Origin: Corallococcus carmarthensis
GTDB lineage: Bacteria > Myxococcota > Myxococcia > Myxococcales > Myxococcaceae
Length of the DNA: 64,000 nucleotides
Direction: 5' to 3'
Assembly: GCF_003611695.1 (NCBI RefSeq)
Contig: NZ_RAWE01000011.1
Coordinates: 1 to 64,000, forward strand
The position numbers were made by a program, and so were the translations under genes. The notes below the pieces were generated by a model, which saw only the letters and a program-made list of their open reading frames with translations, made no database searches and was not told the origin of the DNA. This document shows, piece by piece, positions 1 through 21,837 of this stretch. Position 1 is the first letter of the stretch. Every line of letters starts with the position of its first letter.

Positions 1-440
1 ACCTCGGGGGACTCCGGCACCGCCTTCCCGAAGAGCGCCACGCCTCCAATGAGGGTGAGCAACACCTCCACGACGCTGAGGAAGAGGGCGAGTCCCAGCG
101 ACGTCACCCCCTGGCCCTCGGGGAAGCTGCGGCGCGGGTCGCTCTGGCCGTAGAGCACCTGGATGCGGTCCCCGGGACGCAGCCGCTTCCACAGGTTCGC
201 GGAGACGTTGCGCTGGTGCTCGCGCCGGATGCCGTCTTGCGGCGTGAAGGCGTAGTGCAGCACGTAGTCGGTGTCGTCATCGGCGGCGAGGAGCTCCTTC
301 TTCACCACCGTGCCTTCCGCGTGCAGCCCCTCCCGCAGGATGACCTTGTCGCGCTGGTACGACCCCCAGGTCATCACCAGCATGAACACGCCCACCCCCA
401 CGAACGCCGCTCCCAGGACTCGCGCCGCGATGAGGGCCAC
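1..440 (-). CDS. DUF3592-like membrane protein (3' end cut by window edge)
   Basis: A reading frame on the minus strand runs off the left edge with about 146 residues visible. It starts at GTG (438-440) with AGGAGG six bases upstream, and an in-frame TAA eight codons further up fixes this start. A hydrophobic segment at residues 5-24 is followed by a soluble beta-rich stretch (TYR/HIS-rich, LHYAFTPQDG, then RPGDRIQVLYGQSDPRRSF) and a second membrane segment near residues 113-135. This layout is typical of DUF3592 proteins, whose function is unknown. It is divergent from the ankyrin gene, with 154 bp between the starts. Confidence 0.7.
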   Translation of the reverse strand, partial: MALIAARVLGAAFVGVGVFMLVMTWGSYQRDKVILREGLHAEGTVVKKELLAADDDTDYVLHYAFTPQDGIRREHQRNVSANLWKRLRPGDRIQVLYGQSDPRRSFPEGQGVTSLGLALFLSVVEVLLTLIGGVALFGKAVPESPE

Positions 441-12507: not shown

Positions 12508-13422
12508 TCACGCCGCCACCGGCTCACGGCGATGGCGGGCCCGGGCGGAGACGTCCTTGCGGCGGCCCTTGCGCAGCACGTCCAGGTGCACCTCCTCCTC
12601 GGTGGCGAGCGCCATCAGCCGCTGCAGGTCGTCCACGCTGTTGACCGGCCGGCTGTTGATGCCGAGCAGCAGGTCGTCCGGTTGGAGACCGGCGTCGTCG
12701 GCGGGCGTGCCCTCCTGCACCTTCAGCACGCGCACGGCGCGGAGCTGGCCGGTGTCCTTCGCGAGCGCGGGCTCCAGGTTCACCGCCGTCGCGGCGATGC
12801 CCAGGAACTTCCGGTCCACCCGGCCGCGCTGGATGAGCAGGCTCGCGACCCAGGCCGCGGTGGTGGCGCTCACCGCGAAGCCGATGCCCTGCGCGAACGG
12901 CAGCACCAGCGTGTTGAGCCCCACCACGCGCCCGCGCGTGTCCAGCAACGGTCCGCCGGAGTTGCCCGGGTTGATGGCCGCGTCCGTCTGGAGCATTCCC
13001 TCCAGGATGACGCCGTCCGGCAGCGTGATGGAGCGGTTGATGGCGCTCACCACGCCCAGCGACACCGACTGCTCCAGGCGGAAGGGATTGCCAATGGCCA
13101 TCACCAGCTGTCCCACGCGCACCGTCTCCGGATCCGCGAGCGGCAGCGTGGGGAAGTCGTCTCCTTCCGCGCGCACCACGGCGAGGTCGGTGGGCGCATC
13201 CCCGCCCACCAGCGTGGCCCGGCGCTCCTCGCCGTTGTGGAGCTGCACGGTGAGGCGCTTCGGCGTGCGCATCACCACGTGCCGGTTGGTGAGCACGTAG
13301 CCATCCGGCGTGAGGAACAGGCCGGTGCCGTGGCCGCGCGCGTGCTCCACGCCGACCACCGCCGGGGCCGCGCCGGCCACGAGTCCTTCCAGGTCATCCG
13401 AGAGCTGCTGCAACAGTTTCAT
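12508..13422 (-). CDS. HtrA/DegP-type serine protease with PDZ domain
   Basis: A 304-aa S1C trypsin-like protease. The catalytic triad is complete: H48 (LTNRHVV), D79 (PTDLAVV) and S155 (NPGNSGGPL). A single PDZ domain occupies about residues 205-290 (FLGIAATAV, then AGLQPDDLLLGINSRPVNS). There is no signal peptide, unlike periplasmic DegP/DegS, so it may act in the cytoplasm. It lies 12 bases downstream of a second protease of the same family and both are probably on one transcript. The C-terminus is Arg-rich. Confidence 0.88.
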   Translation of the reverse strand: MKLLQQLSDDLEGLVAGAAPAVVGVEHARGHGTGLFLTPDGYVLTNRHVVMRTPKRLTVQLHNGEERRATLVGGDAPTDLAVVRAEGDDFPTLPLADPETVRVGQLVMAIGNPFRLEQSVSLGVVSAINRSITLPDGVILEGMLQTDAAINPGNSGGPLLDTRGRVVGLNTLVLPFAQGIGFAVSATTAAWVASLLIQRGRVDRKFLGIAATAVNLEPALAKDTGQLRAVRVLKVQEGTPADDAGLQPDDLLLGINSRPVNSVDDLQRLMALATEEEVHLDVLRKGRRKDVSARARHRREPVAA

Positions 13423-13434
13423 GGCCGGCTCCTT

Positions 13435-14325
13435 TCAAGAACGCTTGCCCACGGTGATGGGCACCTCGCGCAGTTCGCCCGCGCGCAACACCTTCGCCGG
13501 GATGGACGCGCCCACCTTCTCGCCGCCCAGGTAGCCCAGCAGGTCCTCCACGCCGTGCAGCGACTGGCCGCCCAGACTCACCAGCACGTCGCCCAGCAGC
13601 AGCCCTGCCTTCTGCGCGGGCCCGTCCGGATCCACGGAGAGCAGGATGAGCCCCGCCTTCGTGCCGTCGATTTCACGCGGCAGGCGCACCGGATACGCGC
13701 CCACGCCCAGGTAGCCACGGCGGATGCCGCCGTGCTCGCGCAACGAATCCGCCACACGCGTCAGCGTGCCGCCGGGGAGCACGACCGCGGCCGTGCGCGA
13801 GAAGGCCGCCGTGGGGATGCCGAGGAAGCGGCCCTGTGCATCCACCAGCGCGCCGCCGGAGAAGCCCGGGGGCAGGTCCGCGTCGGTTTCCAGGTAGCGG
13901 TCCACCTGGCCGCCCGCGTGCGTGCGCCAGTCGCCGCCGAACGCGCTGACGATGCCCAGCGTGGCCCGCGCGGTGCGCCCCGGCCGGCCGATGGCCAACA
14001 CGATGTTGCCCACCTTCACGTCATCGAGCGGCGCGGGCGCGAGCGCGGTCAGTCCGGTGGCATCGGCCTTGAGGAGCGCGAGGTCGGTGCTCGGGTCGCG
14101 GCCGACGAGCTCGGCGGACACCGAGCGGCCGTCCGCGAGGCCCACCTGGATGGAGCCCTCGTGTTCGACGGCGTGGCTGGTGGTGAGGATGTGGCCGTCA
14201 GCATCCCAGACGATGCCGCTGGCGCCCCGGCGACGGCGGGCCTCGACGCGGACGAGGGAGGGAGCGATGCGCTCGACGACGGTGGAGATGGACTGCGAGA
14301 GGGACTGGAGGGTGTCGGTGGACAT
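13435..14325 (-). CDS. HtrA/DegP-type serine protease with PDZ domain
   Basis: A 296-aa paralog of the downstream protease, with the same S1C-PDZ layout. The triad is complete: H51 (TTSHAV), D81 (STDLALL) and S156, though the usual GNSGG around the serine is GFSGG. The PDZ domain is near residues 205-285 (KAGLLLGDVLVSLGGQSLHG). There is no signal peptide. The two proteases are distant enough to have different substrates. Upstream, a 29-base palindrome and four short direct repeats suggest specific control of the pair. Confidence 0.86.
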   Translation of the reverse strand: MSTDTLQSLSQSISTVVERIAPSLVRVEARRRRGASGIVWDADGHILTTSHAVEHEGSIQVGLADGRSVSAELVGRDPSTDLALLKADATGLTALAPAPLDDVKVGNIVLAIGRPGRTARATLGIVSAFGGDWRTHAGGQVDRYLETDADLPPGFSGGALVDAQGRFLGIPTAAFSRTAAVVLPGGTLTRVADSLREHGGIRRGYLGVGAYPVRLPREIDGTKAGLILLSVDPDGPAQKAGLLLGDVLVSLGGQSLHGVEDLLGYLGGEKVGASIPAKVLRAGELREVPITVGKRS

Positions 14326-14462: not shown

Positions 14463-15392
14463 TCAGCCCACCTTGCGGAAGCGCTCGTAGCGCTCTTCGA
14501 GATAGTCCACGTTGGGCCGCAGCTCCCGAGCGCGAGGCGTTTGAAGCGTCTTCCCGACGAAGCCCTTCAGCGCGTGCTCCAGTGTCGGGCCATCCCGGGT
14601 CGCGAGCAGGCTCGGCGCCAGTTCGATGATGCCGTCGGGACGGAAGCCCATCAGGTTCGTGTCGAAGGCACCGTGATGGAGACGGCACAGGGCCAGTCCA
14701 TTGGAGACCTCCGCGTGCCCCCGCTCATCCCGGTCGGGAAGGATGTGGGCCCCGTCCAGCAGCTCCGTGCGAGGGAACGCGCATACGGCACAGCGGTGGT
14801 CGTAGGCGCGCAGGACGTGCTGACGGAAGGCGGCCTGATGCAGCCGCTTCTTGGCCTGCACCGTGGTGTAGCGCCGCTCCAGCGGTAGCAGCTTCGCGTC
14901 CGCAACGAAGAGCTGCCTCGCCGTTTCGGGCTCGGACACCATGACGTGGAAGGAATGCGAGGCGAGGTCCACGTCGGAGATGTAGACGGGCCACAGCGGC
15001 CGGTAGAAGCCGGGCTCGATGCCGTAGAAGTAGATGAGCGGTGCGTCCAATTGCTGCGCGCGCACGAGCCGGCGGTTGTCGCGGCCCTCAACGTCCGTCC
15101 CCTGGAACTTGTAGAGGAAGGCCCCGTCCGAGGCCACGTTGTCATCGTCGTACCGCGCCTCCCGTGAGCCGCGTGGCACGGTGGTCTTGATGGACAGCGC
15201 GGTCTCCTGCATCTGCCGGGGCCAGAAGATGCCGCGTGTCCGGTTGGCGAAGAGGTGTTGCTCGCCGTGGAGTTGGAAGCCCTCCGCGATGCGGTCCCAG
15301 GAAAGGACTTCGCCATGCCGGTCCACCAACGCCTGCAAGGCATTGAAGGCCGCCAGCCGGATGGCCTGGTCGTTGTCGGAGGGCGCGGGCAC
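14463..15392 (-). CDS. HNH endonuclease with N-terminal accessory domains
   Basis: A 309-aa protein. The HNH nuclease core is at about residues 197-245: C201/C204 (RCAVC), H216 (LLDGAHILP), N231 (SNGLALC), C236 and H239-H240. Zinc ligands and catalytic histidine are therefore all present. Residues 1-60 are helical, and 60-170 form a beta-rich domain (IYFYGIEPGFYRPLWPVYIS) of a kind that in McrA-like type IV restriction enzymes reads modified DNA. That role is inference. There is no methylase next to it, so it is either a lone restriction-type nuclease or a repair nuclease. Confidence 0.78.
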   Translation of the reverse strand: MPAPSDNDQAIRLAAFNALQALVDRHGEVLSWDRIAEGFQLHGEQHLFANRTRGIFWPRQMQETALSIKTTVPRGSREARYDDDNVASDGAFLYKFQGTDVEGRDNRRLVRAQQLDAPLIYFYGIEPGFYRPLWPVYISDVDLASHSFHVMVSEPETARQLFVADAKLLPLERRYTTVQAKKRLHQAAFRQHVLRAYDHRCAVCAFPRTELLDGAHILPDRDERGHAEVSNGLALCRLHHGAFDTNLMGFRPDGIIELAPSLLATRDGPTLEHALKGFVGKTLQTPRARELRPNVDYLEERYERFRKVG

Positions 15393-15436: not shown

Positions 15437-16294
15437 TCAGGCTCTGTCGAGCAGGGCGCCGCCCGGGCCGAAGCCCAGGGACAGGCACAGCACGCGGCGT
15501 CCCTTCACCTGCGGAGCCCGCCGCGCGGATTCGGCCGCCAGCTCCGCGTCGTTGAGCACGAGCACCGGCCCCCCCGTGTCCGGCAGGCCCGCTTGGGCGA
15601 GGATGTCCGGGACCAGGGACGCCGTGCCCTCGAAGCCGTACGTGCAGCCTCCGGGCATCAGGTCCTCATCCAGCGGACACGGCAATGCCAGACACAGCGC
15701 GTCCGGAGGCACACGGGCGTCCTCCGCGAGGACGGTCCTCAGTGCCCCCTCGATGAACGCCACCGTGTCCCGGATGTGATGGCCGTCCGCGGGACGTGGC
15801 TGTCCGATGAACAGCGGAGGCAGCGTGGAGAGGTTCCGTTCGAAGACGCGCGTGGCACCGGAGCGTGCGATCTTGATGCTCGTCTGGCCCACGTCCACGC
15901 AGAGCGGACTTCGCGCGCCACGGGCTTCCAGCATGCGCAGCCCCGCGCGCACGGGGGCGAAGCGCGGTGACAGCGCGATGTGCACCGGGCAGCGCAGCGA
16001 CGCCGTGGCCTCCCTCAACGCGGCGGGAAAGCCGTCCAGCTCCGCCAGGCCTCCACTCAGATACGCCGCATCCGGCGCGTGACGCTTCACCAGCAGGAAG
16101 AGCGCCTCCGCCAGCGGAAGCATCACGCGCGCGGAGAGCGTGGCTCCGGGCACTCCCGCGCGCCGGTCATCCTCCACCCACGGCGAGCCCAACACCTCCC
16201 ACAACTCACGCCCGAACACGGGCAGGTTCCAGACCTCCAGCGGGGTGACCCCTTCGGGGTGATGCCGGCGGGGGACCCACCTGGGCGGGCTCAC
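15437..16294 (-). CDS. ROK/ASKHA-like protein with circularly permuted motif order
   Basis: A 285-aa protein. The start is GTG 16292-16294, overlapping the glycosyltransferase stop by GTGA. Normal ROK kinases run phosphate-1 (DxGxT), ND motif, phosphate-2 (GTGxGGG), then the C-terminal GG adenosine motif. Here the order is AAYLSGGLAELDG (80-85), then CVDVGQTSIKIA (134-143), VLNDAELAAE (248-255) and last SLGFGPGGALLD (272-283). The C-terminal half of a ROK fold thus precedes the N-terminal half. It may be a sugar kinase or a regulatory sugar-binding protein. It is the last gene of an operon with a glycosyltransferase and an asparagine-synthetase-like enzyme. Confidence 0.7.
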   Translation of the reverse strand: MSPPRWVPRRHHPEGVTPLEVWNLPVFGRELWEVLGSPWVEDDRRAGVPGATLSARVMLPLAEALFLLVKRHAPDAAYLSGGLAELDGFPAALREATASLRCPVHIALSPRFAPVRAGLRMLEARGARSPLCVDVGQTSIKIARSGATRVFERNLSTLPPLFIGQPRPADGHHIRDTVAFIEGALRTVLAEDARVPPDALCLALPCPLDEDLMPGGCTYGFEGTASLVPDILAQAGLPDTGGPVLVLNDAELAAESARRAPQVKGRRVLCLSLGFGPGGALLDRA

Positions 16295-17484
16295 GTCACG
16301 AGCCCGGCGATGCGTTCGGCGGCGGTCTTCGCGCCGTCGTGCGCGCGGTAGGAGCGGGAGATCTCCGCCACGCGGTCACGCATCTTCGACTCCGGCGCGA
16401 GCAGCTGAGCGATGGCCTCGCGGCATGACTCCACTGTGAGCGTCCTCGGATCCCTCGCGAGCCCCGCTCCGGCCTTCTCCAGGAAGTGTGCCTGCACGGG
16501 CTGGTCGTTGCACACCGGCAGCAGCAGCATCGGCACGCCCGCCGTCATCGCCTCCATCACGGAGTTGGCGCCGCCGTGGGAGATGAACGCCGCCGAGCGC
16601 TCCAACAGCTGCCGCTGCGGCGTGTAGCGCACCGCCACCACGTCACCGGGCAGCGTGCTCGGGAAGTCCGTGTCCGCCAGCTCTCCCGCGCACAACACCA
16701 GCGTCACGCCGAACGGCTTCGCGGCCTCCGCGATGAGGCGGAACAGCTCCGGCTGATACGAAATCTGACTGCCGAAGGACACGTACAGCACCGGCTTGCC
16801 GCCCAGGCGCTCCCAGGGGAAGGGCACTTCATCGCCCCGGGGCTCGGGCGGAATGGACGGGCCCACGAGCAACGTGTTCGGAGGCACTCCCGCGTCCGGG
16901 CCCAGGAACGCCTCCGTGGCGAAGATGACGTTGAGCCGGGGCGACAGGCACTCGCAGGTGCGGAAGCTCGCGTCGAAGCCGTGACGGCGGAACAGGGCCT
17001 GCCGGTCGTCCTTCAACGCTCGCACGTTGCGCAGCAGGGGGATGTCCGGCCGTGGCTCCAGCAGCGTGAGCGCGGAGGACACGCCCGCCCAGGGGATGCC
17101 CTCTGTGTGCGCCGCGAGCACCGCCGCGTACTGCATCCCGTCCAGGGCCATCACGTCAGGACGGAAGGCGCGCACCCCTTCGCGCACGGGCTCCAGGAGC
17201 GCGGGGGCCGCGTCCAGCAGCAGGCCCCGGATCCACTTCCCCAACGCCACGTCATCGAGCACCAGCTTCGCCAGCGCTTCGCCTCCCGTCTCGATGCCCG
17301 GCGGCGCGGCTTCGACGTGCGGCAGGCGCAGCAACTCCACGCCCAGGGCTTCGAGCTGCGGCGCGGGTTCGGGGATGCACAGCCAGCCGACGGTGTGCCC
17401 CAGGCGGCGCAGCCACTGGGCCACGCCGGCCATCGGGTTGAGGTGGCCCTTTTCGGGCGAGGTGGCGATGAGGACACGGGACAT
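16291..17484 (-). CDS. GT1/MGT-type glycosyltransferase
   Basis: A 397-aa GT-B enzyme of the UDP-glycosyltransferase/macrolide glycosyltransferase type. The N-terminal acceptor domain opens MSRVLIATSPEKGHLNPM. The C-terminal nucleotide-sugar domain has PVLYVSFGSQISYQPE, and AAFISHGGANSVMEAM with VPMLLLPVCNDQ near residues 295-325. Such enzymes move a sugar onto small molecules, lipids or antibiotics. It starts one base after the stop of the asparagine-synthetase-like gene (TGA then ATG) and overlaps the ROK-like gene by 4 bases, so the three are translationally linked. Acceptor and sugar are unknown. Confidence 0.87.
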   Translation of the reverse strand: MSRVLIATSPEKGHLNPMAGVAQWLRRLGHTVGWLCIPEPAPQLEALGVELLRLPHVEAAPPGIETGGEALAKLVLDDVALGKWIRGLLLDAAPALLEPVREGVRAFRPDVMALDGMQYAAVLAAHTEGIPWAGVSSALTLLEPRPDIPLLRNVRALKDDRQALFRRHGFDASFRTCECLSPRLNVIFATEAFLGPDAGVPPNTLLVGPSIPPEPRGDEVPFPWERLGGKPVLYVSFGSQISYQPELFRLIAEAAKPFGVTLVLCAGELADTDFPSTLPGDVVAVRYTPQRQLLERSAAFISHGGANSVMEAMTAGVPMLLLPVCNDQPVQAHFLEKAGAGLARDPRTLTVESCREAIAQLLAPESKMRDRVAEISRSYRAHDGAKTAAERIAGLVT

Positions 17485-18999
17485 TCAGGGGGGCGCCTTG
17501 CTGTGAGCCTGGAGCATGGCCAGGGACATGAGGCGCATCAACAACCGATCCATCGGTCCGGCCTGTTCGTCGTCGGGCGACAGGCGGAAGTAGCGCGTCA
17601 GCAGTCCCAGCATCGCCTGCGTGTCGATGACCTGGAGGGAGTCCAGGCGCGCGGGAGAGAGCCAGGCGCGATACAGCTCCAGCCAGCGTTCCCGCACCGG
17701 GCTGGACAGGGCGGTGTGCCCGTACCGGGGCGTCTTGCGTGCGAGGCGGACCTCATCCGGCACCAGGGACCGCACCGCGTGCCGGAACAGCCACTTGCCG
17801 AACCCCTCTCGCATCAGCACGGACTCCGGCAGGGCCAGCGCCACCCGCGCGAAGCCTTCATCCAGATACGGCGTGCGGACCGTGAGCCCATGGGCCCGGG
17901 CGCCCCGCAGCTCGGGCGGGAGGATGAGCTCGGTCAGCACCCACTTCGCGTACCGCAGCTCCTCGGAGGGGAGCGCCTCCTCCGAGGGCAGATCCCAAGG
18001 CGCGGGCAGCGAGGCCAGCACGGTCCCCAGGTTGTCCACAGGGGGGGCGCGCGAGGCGTGATCGCTGTTCAAGCCCCCGGAAACAGTCCTCAAGTTGTCC
18101 ACAGGGGTGGAGTCCTCGCGGCGCCCCACGGCTTGATCGCGCCCGCCATCTCCAGAGGGGAAATGCCCCGTGGATGGCTTTGGTTCCTGATCGCCACGCG
18201 GCGCCCCATGCAGGGGCCTCCCCGAGTTGTCCACAGCCCCCCGTGCCACTCCAGGGGGCGTTTCATGATCGCGCGAGCCGGCTGGGAACGGCGCCCGCAA
18301 GTTGTCCACAAGCCGCATGCCTTCGAATCCCAGGGCCCGCATGGCCAGCGTCCGGTCTTCATCCACGCGAGCCTTCGCGGAGGCGATCGCGCCTGGGGTG
18401 CCCTGGAGCACTTCGTCCGCCCCCGCGCCGCTAAGGAGGACAGGGCCCGCGCCCTGCCGCCGGGCCTCCAGATAGAACGCGTAGCTGGCCACGGCCCGGG
18501 CGTTGAGGATGACCGTCTGGTTGGCGAGGACCGCGCGCTCGAACAGGTCCGGGAGCACGGCGTCCGGGATGAGCACGTCCACCAGCTCCGCGCCCGTCAC
18601 CTTCGCCATCCGCCGCGCGTTGCTCCGCTCCACCGCGTCCGCGAAGTGCACGTCCATCGTCCAGGCGCGCACCCTCCCCGGAGCATGCCGGGCGGCCATC
18701 GCGCACATGGCCGCGCTGTCCACCCCACCGCTCAGGCTCACCTCATGCGTGCCTGCTTCGACATGCGCCCGCACGGTGTCGGACCAGGCGGACAACAGCC
18801 GCGCTGAGAGCCCTTCCTCATCCCGAGCCGCTGGCTCACGGATGACTCTGGGCAGCGGCACGTCGAAGGGAACCGCCTCTGGCCGCAGGCCCGCGTTGGA
18901 TGCGCGGGCATGGAACAGCAGGTCGCTCACCGCCCGAGGAGACAGGCCGCGCGTGGGAGTCCTTCCCTGGGGTGACGCTTTGGGAGGCCGGGTCGGCAT
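17485..18999 (-). CDS. Asparagine-synthetase-like ATP pyrophosphatase lacking the glutaminase domain
   Basis: A 504-aa protein with the AsnB C-terminal domain: the PP-loop S90-GGVDS95, then LLSGAGADEVLQG near 195 and TVRTPYLDEGF near 377. The N-terminal Cys-dependent glutaminase domain is missing; only the linker before the synthetase domain remains (AVPFDVPLPRVI). It would need free ammonia or a different amine, as in beta-lactam synthetase or lasso-cyclase relatives. Residues about 230-323 are a Pro/Gly/Arg-rich insertion with four VDN units encoded by DNA repeats. It is the first gene of a three-gene operon, so amide bond formation followed by glycosylation is plausible. Confidence 0.8.
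   Translation of the reverse strand: MPTRPPKASPQGRTPTRGLSPRAVSDLLFHARASNAGLRPEAVPFDVPLPRVIREPAARDEEGLSARLLSAWSDTVRAHVEAGTHEVSLSGGVDSAAMCAMAARHAPGRVRAWTMDVHFADAVERSNARRMAKVTGAELVDVLIPDAVLPDLFERAVLANQTVILNARAVASYAFYLEARRQGAGPVLLSGAGADEVLQGTPGAIASAKARVDEDRTLAMRALGFEGMRLVDNLRAPFPAGSRDHETPPGVARGAVDNSGRPLHGAPRGDQEPKPSTGHFPSGDGGRDQAVGRREDSTPVDNLRTVSGGLNSDHASRAPPVDNLGTVLASLPAPWDLPSEEALPSEELRYAKWVLTELILPPELRGARAHGLTVRTPYLDEGFARVALALPESVLMREGFGKWLFRHAVRSLVPDEVRLARKTPRYGHTALSSPVRERWLELYRAWLSPARLDSLQVIDTQAMLGLLTRYFRLSPDDEQAGPMDRLLMRLMSLAMLQAHSKAPP
18031..18310. repeat. In-frame degenerate tandem repeat with four TTGTCCACA words
   Basis: TTGTCCACA occurs perfectly at 18032-18040, 18095-18103, 18227-18235 and 18302-18310, all in one orientation. 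A decayed copy (CTCCAGAGGGG, about 18147-18160) fills the gap. Units of 53-79 bases each also carry a TGATCGC word. TTGTCCACA matches the DnaA box form usual in GC-rich bacteria. The array sits inside the synthetase gene, keeps the frame and codes VDN on the minus strand. Confidence 0.75.
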
Positions 19000-21042: not shown

Positions 21043-21837
21043 GTGCGCTACGAGCTTCACGACAGCCGCGTCCTCACCTGGTCCCTGGAGACGCACGTCA
21101 CCACGCACTGCAACCTGCGCTGCGCGCAGTGCTGCCCGCTGTCGCCGCACCTGCCCGCGTGGGCCGTGTCTCCCCAGGCGCTGGGCGAGGACCTGCGCCG
21201 GCTGGCGCGCGTGCTCAAGCCCAACGTCTTCAAGCTCACCGGCGGTGAGCCCTTCCTCCATCCGGACCTGCCCGCCGTGCTGGACGTGGTGCGCGCCTCC
21301 GGCATCACCGAACAGCTGTCCGTCACCACCAACGGCTTCCTCGCCCAGAGCGCCCCCGACGCCGTGTACGAACGGCTCGACCGGATGACCCTGTCGTTCT
21401 ACGCGTCCGCGCCGCTGCCCGAGCGGTCCATCACGCGCATCACCGAACGCTGCGACCAGCACGGCGTGCACCTCACGGTGAAGGCCATCGACCGCTTCCA
21501 GCGCATCACCCCGGACGCCCCGCTCGCGTCCGACGCGCAGGTGCAGGACGTCTTCGAGAAGTGCTGGCTCAAGCAGCGCTGCCACCTGGTCCACCGGGGC
21601 CGCTTCTACACCTGCACCCGGCCGCCCCACGTCGCCACCGTCCTCGCGGCGGAACATCCGCACCTGCCCGCGCTCGCCGAACATGACGGTGTTCCGCTCG
21701 ATGATCCGGAGCTGCTCACGCGCCTGCTGGCCTACCTGGAACGCGACGCGCCGCTGGCCACCTGCCGCCACTGCCTGGGTTCCAGCGGCCCGTGGGAACC
21801 CCACGCGCAGCTGCCTCGCGCCCGCGCCGCTTCCTGA
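21043..21837 (+). CDS. Radical SAM protein with C-terminal cysteine cluster
   Basis: A 264-aa enzyme starting at GTG 21043. The Fe-S/SAM motif is C23-NLR-C27-AQ-C30. KLTGGEPFLHPDL follows as the GGE motif. Later cysteines (CWLKQRC, CTRPP and CRHCLG) form a SPASM/twitch-like auxiliary cluster near residues 175-250. The overall plan resembles small peptide- or nucleotide-modifying radical SAM proteins such as HpnH/MoaA relatives. No precursor peptide is evident nearby. It follows recQ closely, and its TGA and the stop of the convergent kinase gene meet exactly at the TGATCA palindrome 21835-21840. Confidence 0.78.
   Translation: MRYELHDSRVLTWSLETHVTTHCNLRCAQCCPLSPHLPAWAVSPQALGEDLRRLARVLKPNVFKLTGGEPFLHPDLPAVLDVVRASGITEQLSVTTNGFLAQSAPDAVYERLDRMTLSFYASAPLPERSITRITERCDQHGVHLTVKAIDRFQRITPDAPLASDAQVQDVFEKCWLKQRCHLVHRGRFYTCTRPPHVATVLAAEHPHLPALAEHDGVPLDDPELLTRLLAYLERDAPLATCRHCLGSSGPWEPHAQLPRARAAS

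What the first reader, a model, noticed from the sequence alone, without database searches (positions are those of the whole stretch)
15437..16294. ROK-like sugar-kinase fold in circularly permuted order
Motifs appear as GG adenosine motif, DVGQT phosphate-1, ND, then GFGPGG phosphate-2. The normal order starts with DxGxT and ends with the GG motif. The start is fixed by a GTGA overlap, so this is not a misplaced gene boundary. A natural circular permutation of an ASKHA kinase would be rare, and would put the chain ends in the interior of the normal fold.
Basis: partly seen in the sequence, partly recalled or inferred. Interest (0 to 1): 0.74.

Follow-up and report, generated by a model that had tools for sequence, protein, structure and literature searches.

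The report
Naturally rearranged sugar-kinase-like protein in myxobacteria
A myxobacterial gene encodes a sugar-kinase-like enzyme whose chain starts and ends in the middle of the usual fold, and the same rearranged order is kept in distant relatives, so nature appears to have cut and rejoined an ancient enzyme fold while keeping its active-site parts.

Summary
Window 15437-16294 (minus strand, 285 aa, GTG start inside a GTGA overlap) carries GG (81-82), DVGQT (134-138), ND (248-249) and GFGPGG (274-279) in that order. All 21 family members put through the motif check share the order, two of them on viral contigs, and end 4-11 residues after phosphate-2. An AlphaFold2 model is confident (pLDDT 90, pTM 0.89). 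Residues 124-285 match the first half of a ROK glucokinase (2qm1 -1..151); residues 1-127 modelled alone match the later part of ROK-type chains in each of the first 25 rows (2qm1 151..302). Sequence profiles agree: C-block to ROK 3-142, N-block to the C-terminal end of MreB. This is best read as a natural circular permutation of a ROK-like ASKHA kinase, cut in the C-lobe after its first two strands. It matches no family in Pfam, NCBIfam or PHROGs. Neighbouring genes (glycosyltransferase, asparagine-synthase-like ligase; in distant relatives a PIG-L deacetylase; on the viral contigs a nucleotidyltransferase) suggest a sugar kinase. Activity and substrate are inferred, not shown, and no permutation-aware superposition could be run.

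The parts
15437..16294 (-). Circularly permuted ROK-like (ASKHA) kinase, 285 aa, GTG start, TGA stop
15917..16294 (-). N-block, residues 1-126: equivalent of the linear kinase's C-terminal lobe from about its third strand to its end
   Evidence: fragment model of residues 1-127 matches the later part of ROK-type chains; profile match to MreB C-terminus
16046..16057 (-). Adenosine-type motif SGGL, residues 80-83 (G81 G82 invariant)
15881..15895 (-). Phosphate-1 motif DVGQT, residues 134-138; a linear kinase starts just before this point
   Evidence: aligned with the start of ROK
15548..15553 (-). ND, residues 248-249: candidate catalytic Asp in the invariant NDAELAA
15458..15475 (-). Phosphate-2 motif GFGPGG, residues 274-279; the chain ends 6 residues later
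16291..16294 (-). GTGA: kinase start codon overlapping the stop of the upstream glycosyltransferase gene
16291..17484 (-). MGT-like (UDPGT/EryCIII-type) glycosyltransferase, conserved upstream partner
   Evidence: PF00201 E 6.9e-19; TIGR01426 151 bits, below its cut-off of 260; conserved
17485..18999 (-). Asparagine-synthase-like ATP-dependent ligase; no glutaminase domain was matched
   Evidence: PF00733 E 6.9e-41; conserved
21043..21837 (+). Radical SAM protein on the other strand; beside the cassette in Myxococcus-type loci, upstream of the kinase in L019
   Evidence: PF04055

Best explanation
The gene encodes a natural circular permutant of a ROK-like sugar kinase (ASKHA superfamily). The chain starts near the third strand of what is normally the C-lobe, runs through the adenosine GG block to the end of that lobe, continues through a linker of variable length (where the old C- and N-termini would be joined) into the whole N-lobe (phosphate-1 DVGQT, ND), and ends with the first two strands of the C-lobe, which carry phosphate-2 (GFGPGG). 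Shown by computation: the order, its conservation, and the fold relation of each half. Inferred: the folded enzyme rebuilds the usual two-lobed ATP site; D134 acts with Mg, GFGPGG and GG hold ATP, D249 activates a hydroxyl; it phosphorylates a sugar or amino sugar for a glycosyltransferase-containing pathway. The substrate is unknown.
For: 21 of 21 members share the order and end 4-11 residues after phosphate-2. Model pLDDT 90.1, pTM 0.89. The two halves match complementary halves of one ROK glucokinase chain: 124-285 to 2qm1_B -1..151 (Z 9.8, rmsd 3.4, 142 aligned) and 14-108 of the fragment model to 2qm1_B 151..302 (Z 6.1, rmsd 3.9, 94 aligned). In 36 of the 50 rows the sequential alignment covers about 11-15 to 261-266 of the model, leaving out its last two strands, and in 34 of those 36 it enters the target at residue 19 or later (MreB 4czk 28..334), as a permutant should give against pseudo-symmetric lobes; the two exceptions are 3h1q and 7t1i. 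Profiles (E for one comparison each): C-block to ROK 3-142 (E 3.1e-5; 5.1e-6); N-block to MreB 297-342 of 355 (E 5.6e-6); PilM and BadF give the same pattern weakly; reversed templates score lower in 10 of 10 comparisons. In a blind genome search the N-block matched MreB C-termini. In the fragment model residues 1-20 lose their strands and confidence, consistent with pairing to the other half. Two long insertions lie at the junction of the old termini (L015; L058).
Against: No Pfam match for the native sequence or for two rotated members and no PDB sequence match. N-block against ROK by profile equals its reversed control (14.9 and 14.9), and there C-block against MreB scores below its reversed control (11.8, 12.7). 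Rotation does not raise local scores. Rotated global alignment to ROK covers 251 columns but scores worse (31.4, E 6.5e-6) than unrotated over 138 (40.2, E 1.6e-7); rotated global scores are also worse for MreB, PilM and BadF. Foldseek TM-scores are low, and 3 of its 8 hits at E <= 0.001 are ketoacyl synthases of another fold. Ten rows, eukaryotic hexokinases and glucokinases ranked from 2nd on, spread model 10-13..259-285 over 150-190 target residues and are not explained simply. Fragment Z is at most 7.5 with rmsd 6-7 A in most rows, a level the tool warns may be a common arrangement. No coordinates were available for a permutation-aware superposition.
Confidence: 0.92

Rival explanations
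1. It is a conventional, unpermuted two-lobed ASKHA protein; the apparent inversion arises because the two RNase H-like lobes resemble each other.
For: 36 of 50 sequential alignments place about residues 11-266 on linear ASKHA chains with Z 8-9.
Against: Those alignments omit the last two strands of the model, and 34 of the 36 enter the target at residue 19 or later. The N-block alone prefers the later part of ROK-type chains (25 of the first 25 rows) and the MreB C-terminus; the C-block matches ROK 3-142 straight through phosphate-2. Even with the lobes named the other way round, the last two strands sit at the opposite chain end.
Confidence: 0.03
2. It is a broken gene, a frameshift or a chance fusion of two half-kinases.
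For: Two genomes have insertions inside the gene (L057, L058).
Against: Same order and end in 21 of 21 members; dN/dS 0.17-0.34 against 4 orthologs; no stop inside any listed match; both insertions keep the frame.
Confidence: 0.01
3. It is a real permutant but not a sugar kinase: a nucleotide-dependent regulator, or a kinase for a non-sugar substrate such as a pathway intermediate.
For: ROK and ASKHA proteins include regulators and cytoskeletal ATPases (recalled); the CxCG motif is absent in 21 of 21; the N-block's best sequence match is MreB; no substrate-binding residue was identified.
Against: Motifs for ATP binding and the ND aspartate are invariant in 10 of 10 diverse members. Neighbours include glycosyltransferases, a PIG-L deacetylase in L051 and L052, and a MobA-like nucleotidyltransferase on both viral contigs. 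No DNA-binding or other extra domain is apparent in the model (inference).
Confidence: 0.25

Closest known systems
ROK family sugar kinases (Pfam PF00480)
   Same: Two lobes, phosphate-1 DxGxT, ND aspartate, phosphate-2 GxGxGG, adenosine GG; each half matches the corresponding half of ROK structures.
   Different: Order circularly permuted; no PF00480 match; no CxCG motif; chain ends lie where ROK has an internal loop.
MreB / PilM / BadF ASKHA ATPases
   Same: The C-terminal end of their C-lobe resembles the N-block in sequence (MreB E 5.6e-6; PilM and BadF weaker).
   Different: Linear order; filament, pilus or activator roles (recalled); the C-block matches ROK far better than any of them.
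ADP-dependent glucokinase versus a ribokinase-type sugar kinase (1gc5 / 1v1b)
   Same: A kinase pair with reordered segments around the nucleotide site, described as a segment swap in PMC2213659 (passages seen).
   Different: A different fold (recalled), not ASKHA; a swap of neighbouring segments.
Ribonuclease H-like domain pair related by circular permutation in CIRPIN (PMC12667903)
   Same: RNase H-like domain and circular permutation (passages seen).
   Different: The text has no occurrence of the whole words kinase, actin or ROK.
Kinase fold classification of PMC1079889
   Same: States in general that families within one kinase fold group may be related by circular permutation; its group 4 is ribonuclease H-like and holds ASKHA (passages seen).
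   Different: The passages seen name no permuted member of the ribonuclease H-like group.

Membership tests
ASKHA superfamily | Two RNase H-like lobes around a nucleotide site | tested here: met
   Predicted model and structural matches
[quoted passage not shown]
   Read in sequence; key residues invariant in 10 of 10 diverse members
ASKHA superfamily | Linear order phosphate-1, phosphate-2, adenosine | tested here: not met
   Order adenosine, phosphate-1, phosphate-2 in 21 of 21
ROK family (PF00480) | Match to the family model | tested here: not met
   No Pfam family at E up to 1 native; no ROK match at E up to 10 for two rotated members
ROK family (PF00480) | ROK-like fold of both halves | tested here: met
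   Complementary halves of 2qm1; moderate Z, predicted models only
ROK family (PF00480) | Zinc-binding CxCG-type motif (recalled as a ROK feature) | tested here: not met
   Absent in 21 of 21
ROK family (PF00480) | ND aspartate at the end of the N-lobe | tested here: met
   NDAELAA invariant and aligned with ROK ND
ROK family (PF00480) | ATP-dependent sugar kinase activity | not testable with these tools
   Needs an enzyme assay

The most novel reading that the evidence does not exclude
This is the founding family of naturally circularly permuted ASKHA kinases, shared by myxobacteria, other lineages of their phylum and two viral contigs, working as a sugar kinase that feeds a nucleotidyltransferase and glycosyltransferases; one ancestral cut after the second strand of the C-lobe was fixed and kept.
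Probability: 0.45. Interest if true: 0.82.

Novelty: new variant of a known kind. Interest (0 to 1): 0.74.

Why it matters
ASKHA proteins (sugar kinases, actin, Hsp70) bind ATP between two lobes. A family that survives with its chain ends moved into one lobe would show that the usual chain order is not needed for that site, and gives a natural test of how lobe motion and folding depend on connectivity. The Pfam, NCBIfam and PHROGs models all miss it, so other permuted kinases may be hidden among unnamed proteins.

Tried and rejected
Family and sequence searches that found nothing: Pfam native and rotated (the rotated L019 had one weak unrelated hit, DUF7126 E 0.073), Pfam on L051, L052, L174 and L175 kinases (one weak unrelated hit, CMD E 0.048), PHROGs, PDB by sequence, plasmids. 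NCBIfam gave one insignificant hit to beta-glucoside kinase BglK (E 0.26, residues 53-98 to profile 214-259 of 291, the expected C-terminal place). Rotating the profile does not raise any local score, and rotated global alignments score worse than unrotated partial ones; that test did not help the permutation reading except that the ROK alignment then spans both blocks. Ppx/GppA profiles were uninformative; the matched stretches I used appear to begin after phosphate-1. The own genome holds only partial 35% matches to the PIG-L and GT2 genes seen beside distant relatives, so those partners are not placed in this organism. No close linear relative appeared among listed matches in 195 genomes of the phylum at E up to 1e-3, but at most 12 candidates per genome were scored. 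Outside the phylum only one genome-contig scan with close-relative patterns, viral contigs and plasmids were searched. Literature: eight searches, seven of them on permutation, showed no listing about a circularly permuted ASKHA or ROK kinase; I saw listings and starts of abstracts, and passages of PMC1079889, PMC7824862, PMC2213659 and PMC12667903 only. The library lacks most subscription journals.

Left out before counts: the 21-member set omits 4 of the 19 loci (L002, L006, L007, L008; they are in alignment A1 with the same order), L057 and L058 (with insertions; same order, read), and the other members, most of which I did not read one by one. L115 was skipped in the MreB panel, and the panels used selected loci, not all matches. 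An early ROK extraction read the wrong strand for minus-strand loci and was redone. L051 was started 30 bases downstream from then on.

Full report
Observation. The ORF is window 15437-16294 on the minus strand, 285 aa, GTG start. The start overlaps the stop of an MGT-like glycosyltransferase gene (GTGA, 16291-16294). Reading the protein gives SGGL (80-83), DVGQT (134-138), ND (248-249) and GFGPGG (274-279). A linear ROK kinase has phosphate-1 first and the adenosine GG last (recalled; the 19 ROK proteins extracted begin with a DxGxT-type motif). The window is probably Corallococcus: its nearest hits by this protein are Corallococcus at 92-94% (inference).

Conservation of the order. A genome scan found 19 loci, 57-94% identical in the best segment for 18 and 32% for the MAG L019. 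Alignment A1 shows one order in all 20 rows. A search of 195 genomes of the phylum listed 53 with a match at E up to 1e-3. Four of these (G143, G144, G145, G187) are MreB proteins matched only by the N-block (read), leaving 49 with a family member; in 47 one match spans both blocks, and in G122 and G138 an insertion splits it into two pieces in the same order. Distant members L051 and L052 have the same order. A scan of viral contigs added L174 and L175 (29% best segment); two further scans found only the same two contigs. In the 21-member set the order holds in 21 of 21, no CxCG motif occurs, and every protein stops 4-11 residues after phosphate-2. Invariant columns across 10 diverse members include both Gly of GG, D, G, Q and T of phosphate-1, NDAELAA and three Gly of phosphate-2. 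dN/dS against four orthologs is 0.17-0.34, consistent with purifying selection.

Fold. AlphaFold2 with 20 sequences gave pLDDT 90.1 and pTM 0.89. [quoted passage not shown] The strand order of the model fits one lobe split in two: residues 6-124 supply the third strand onward and 267-283 the first two (my reading). Foldseek's 8 hits at E <= 0.001 are three kinase chains of two entries (3lm2 twice, 3htv), an exopolyphosphatase, a pilus-machine chain and three ketoacyl synthases, all at low TM-scores. Of the 50 VIA-align rows, 3 place about 124-285 on the first half of sugar kinases (2qm1, 4db3, 7p7i); 36 run from 11-15 to 261-266 of the model, omit its last two strands and, in 34 cases, enter the target at residue 19 or later; 10 are eukaryotic hexokinases or glucokinases whose ranges I cannot explain simply; 1 is 3zyy (best Z, 10.6). 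The 36 are what pseudo-symmetric lobes plus a displaced pair of strands would give.

The N-block alone. Residues 1-127, modelled alone (pLDDT 77.8, pTM 0.68) and realigned, match ROK-type chains in each of the first 25 rows, entered at residue 117 or later, that is, in about the last 60% of the chain or less (ROK assignment partly from titles, partly recalled). Later rows are mixed and include unrelated proteins. 2qm1_B is covered from 151 to 302, complementary to the other half. Z is 7.5 at most and rmsd 6-7 A in most rows, so single rows are weak; the agreement of the rows is the evidence. In the fragment the first 20 residues lose strands and confidence (55 and 50 against 80 and 95), as expected if they need the missing strands.

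Sequence profiles. Against panels of ROK, MreB, PilM, BadF and Ppx built here, the C-block matches ROK 3-142 (E 3.1e-5), PilM 2-16 (0.0078) and BadF 2-15 (0.026); the N-block matches MreB 297-342 of 355 (E 5.6e-6), PilM 278-308 of 344 (0.0048), BadF 350-421 of 429 (0.022) and, insignificantly, ROK 242-270 of 314 (0.17) (each E is for one comparison). MreB did not recognise the C-block, and Ppx recognised neither. Reversed templates scored lower in 10 of 10 comparisons there. With the viral members added the placements are the same, but N-block/ROK equals its reversed control and C-block/MreB falls below its own. Rotated, the profile aligns globally to ROK over 251 columns (score 31.4) against 138 unrotated (40.2); rotated global scores are lower for MreB, PilM and BadF too, and local scores hardly change. 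So the profiles support the placement of each block, not a better end-to-end alignment. In the second phylum search 89 of 195 genomes matched; the 40 beyond the 49 match only model positions 37-147. I compared eight of these (G140, G056, G106, G045, G055, G162, G139, G159): all eight lie at the C-terminal end of an MreB gene. The others were not all identified.

The junction. Two long insertions lie where the old termini would be joined: 11 alignment columns in L015 and a repetitive stretch of more than 60 residues in L058. L057 has its insertion elsewhere. A tolerant linker there fits a permutation.

Surroundings. In all 18 Myxococcaceae-type loci (L001-L018) the gene follows an asparagine-synthase-like gene and the glycosyltransferase. 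A radical SAM gene lies beside the cassette in L010-L018; in the window a RecQ-type helicase gene lies between. L051 and L052 carry a full asparagine synthase with glutaminase domain, the glycosyltransferase, the kinase and a PIG-L deacetylase; L051 also a GT2; L019 has radical SAM, GT2, kinase. On the two viral contigs the kinase is followed by a MobA-like nucleotidyltransferase (directly in L174, after an FkbM methyltransferase in L175), with a weak glycosyltransferase-like match further on in L174, below its cut-off. The gene upstream of the kinase there has no Pfam match; calling it a glycosyltransferase would be a guess. Kinase plus nucleotidyltransferase suggests activated-sugar synthesis; which hydroxyl is phosphorylated is unknown.

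Verdict. A natural circular permutation of a ROK-like ASKHA kinase is the best reading (0.92; unchanged after checking). Catalysis on a sugar is likely but unproven (about 0.7 given the permutation). Membership in ROK as defined by PF00480 is not met. No listing about a circularly permuted ASKHA kinase appeared in the searches made, which cover only an open-access library; PMC1079889 says in general that families within a kinase fold group may be related by circular permutation, without naming one in the ribonuclease H-like group in the passages seen.

Noticed in passing
window 17485-18999 (-), mainly 18020-18310: The asparagine-synthase-like gene carries four GTTGTCCACA units (coding VDN peptides) between its two conserved halves; the matching stretch is missing in most Myxococcus-type orthologs. 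The 12-mer GTGGACAACCTG occurs 16 times in the genome against 4 for its backwards control.
   Followed up: partly
L174 4974-5777 and L175 1353-2195: Relatives of the permuted kinase lie on two viral contigs of 96 and 98 kb near a nucleotidyltransferase gene. Whether the contigs are truly viral was not tested.
   Followed up: partly
window 14463-15392 (-): HNH_2 protein resembling phosphorothioated-DNA-binding restriction endonucleases (NF045808 67 bits, below its cut-off of 180), beside the kinase in many but not all related loci.
   Followed up: no
window 12508-13422 and 13435-14325 (-): Two adjacent genes for related proteases (the first with trypsin-like and PDZ domains), about 33% identical to each other and side by side in many related loci.
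   Followed up: no
L017: A public contig titled Comamonas sp. KCTC 72670 carries this myxobacterial cassette; a contig of the same length (427423) sits in genome G125, placed in the window's family, so the record title looks wrong.
   Followed up: partly
L057 and L058: Two genomes have in-frame low-complexity insertions in the kinase gene, the one in L058 at the junction of the old termini.
   Followed up: partly
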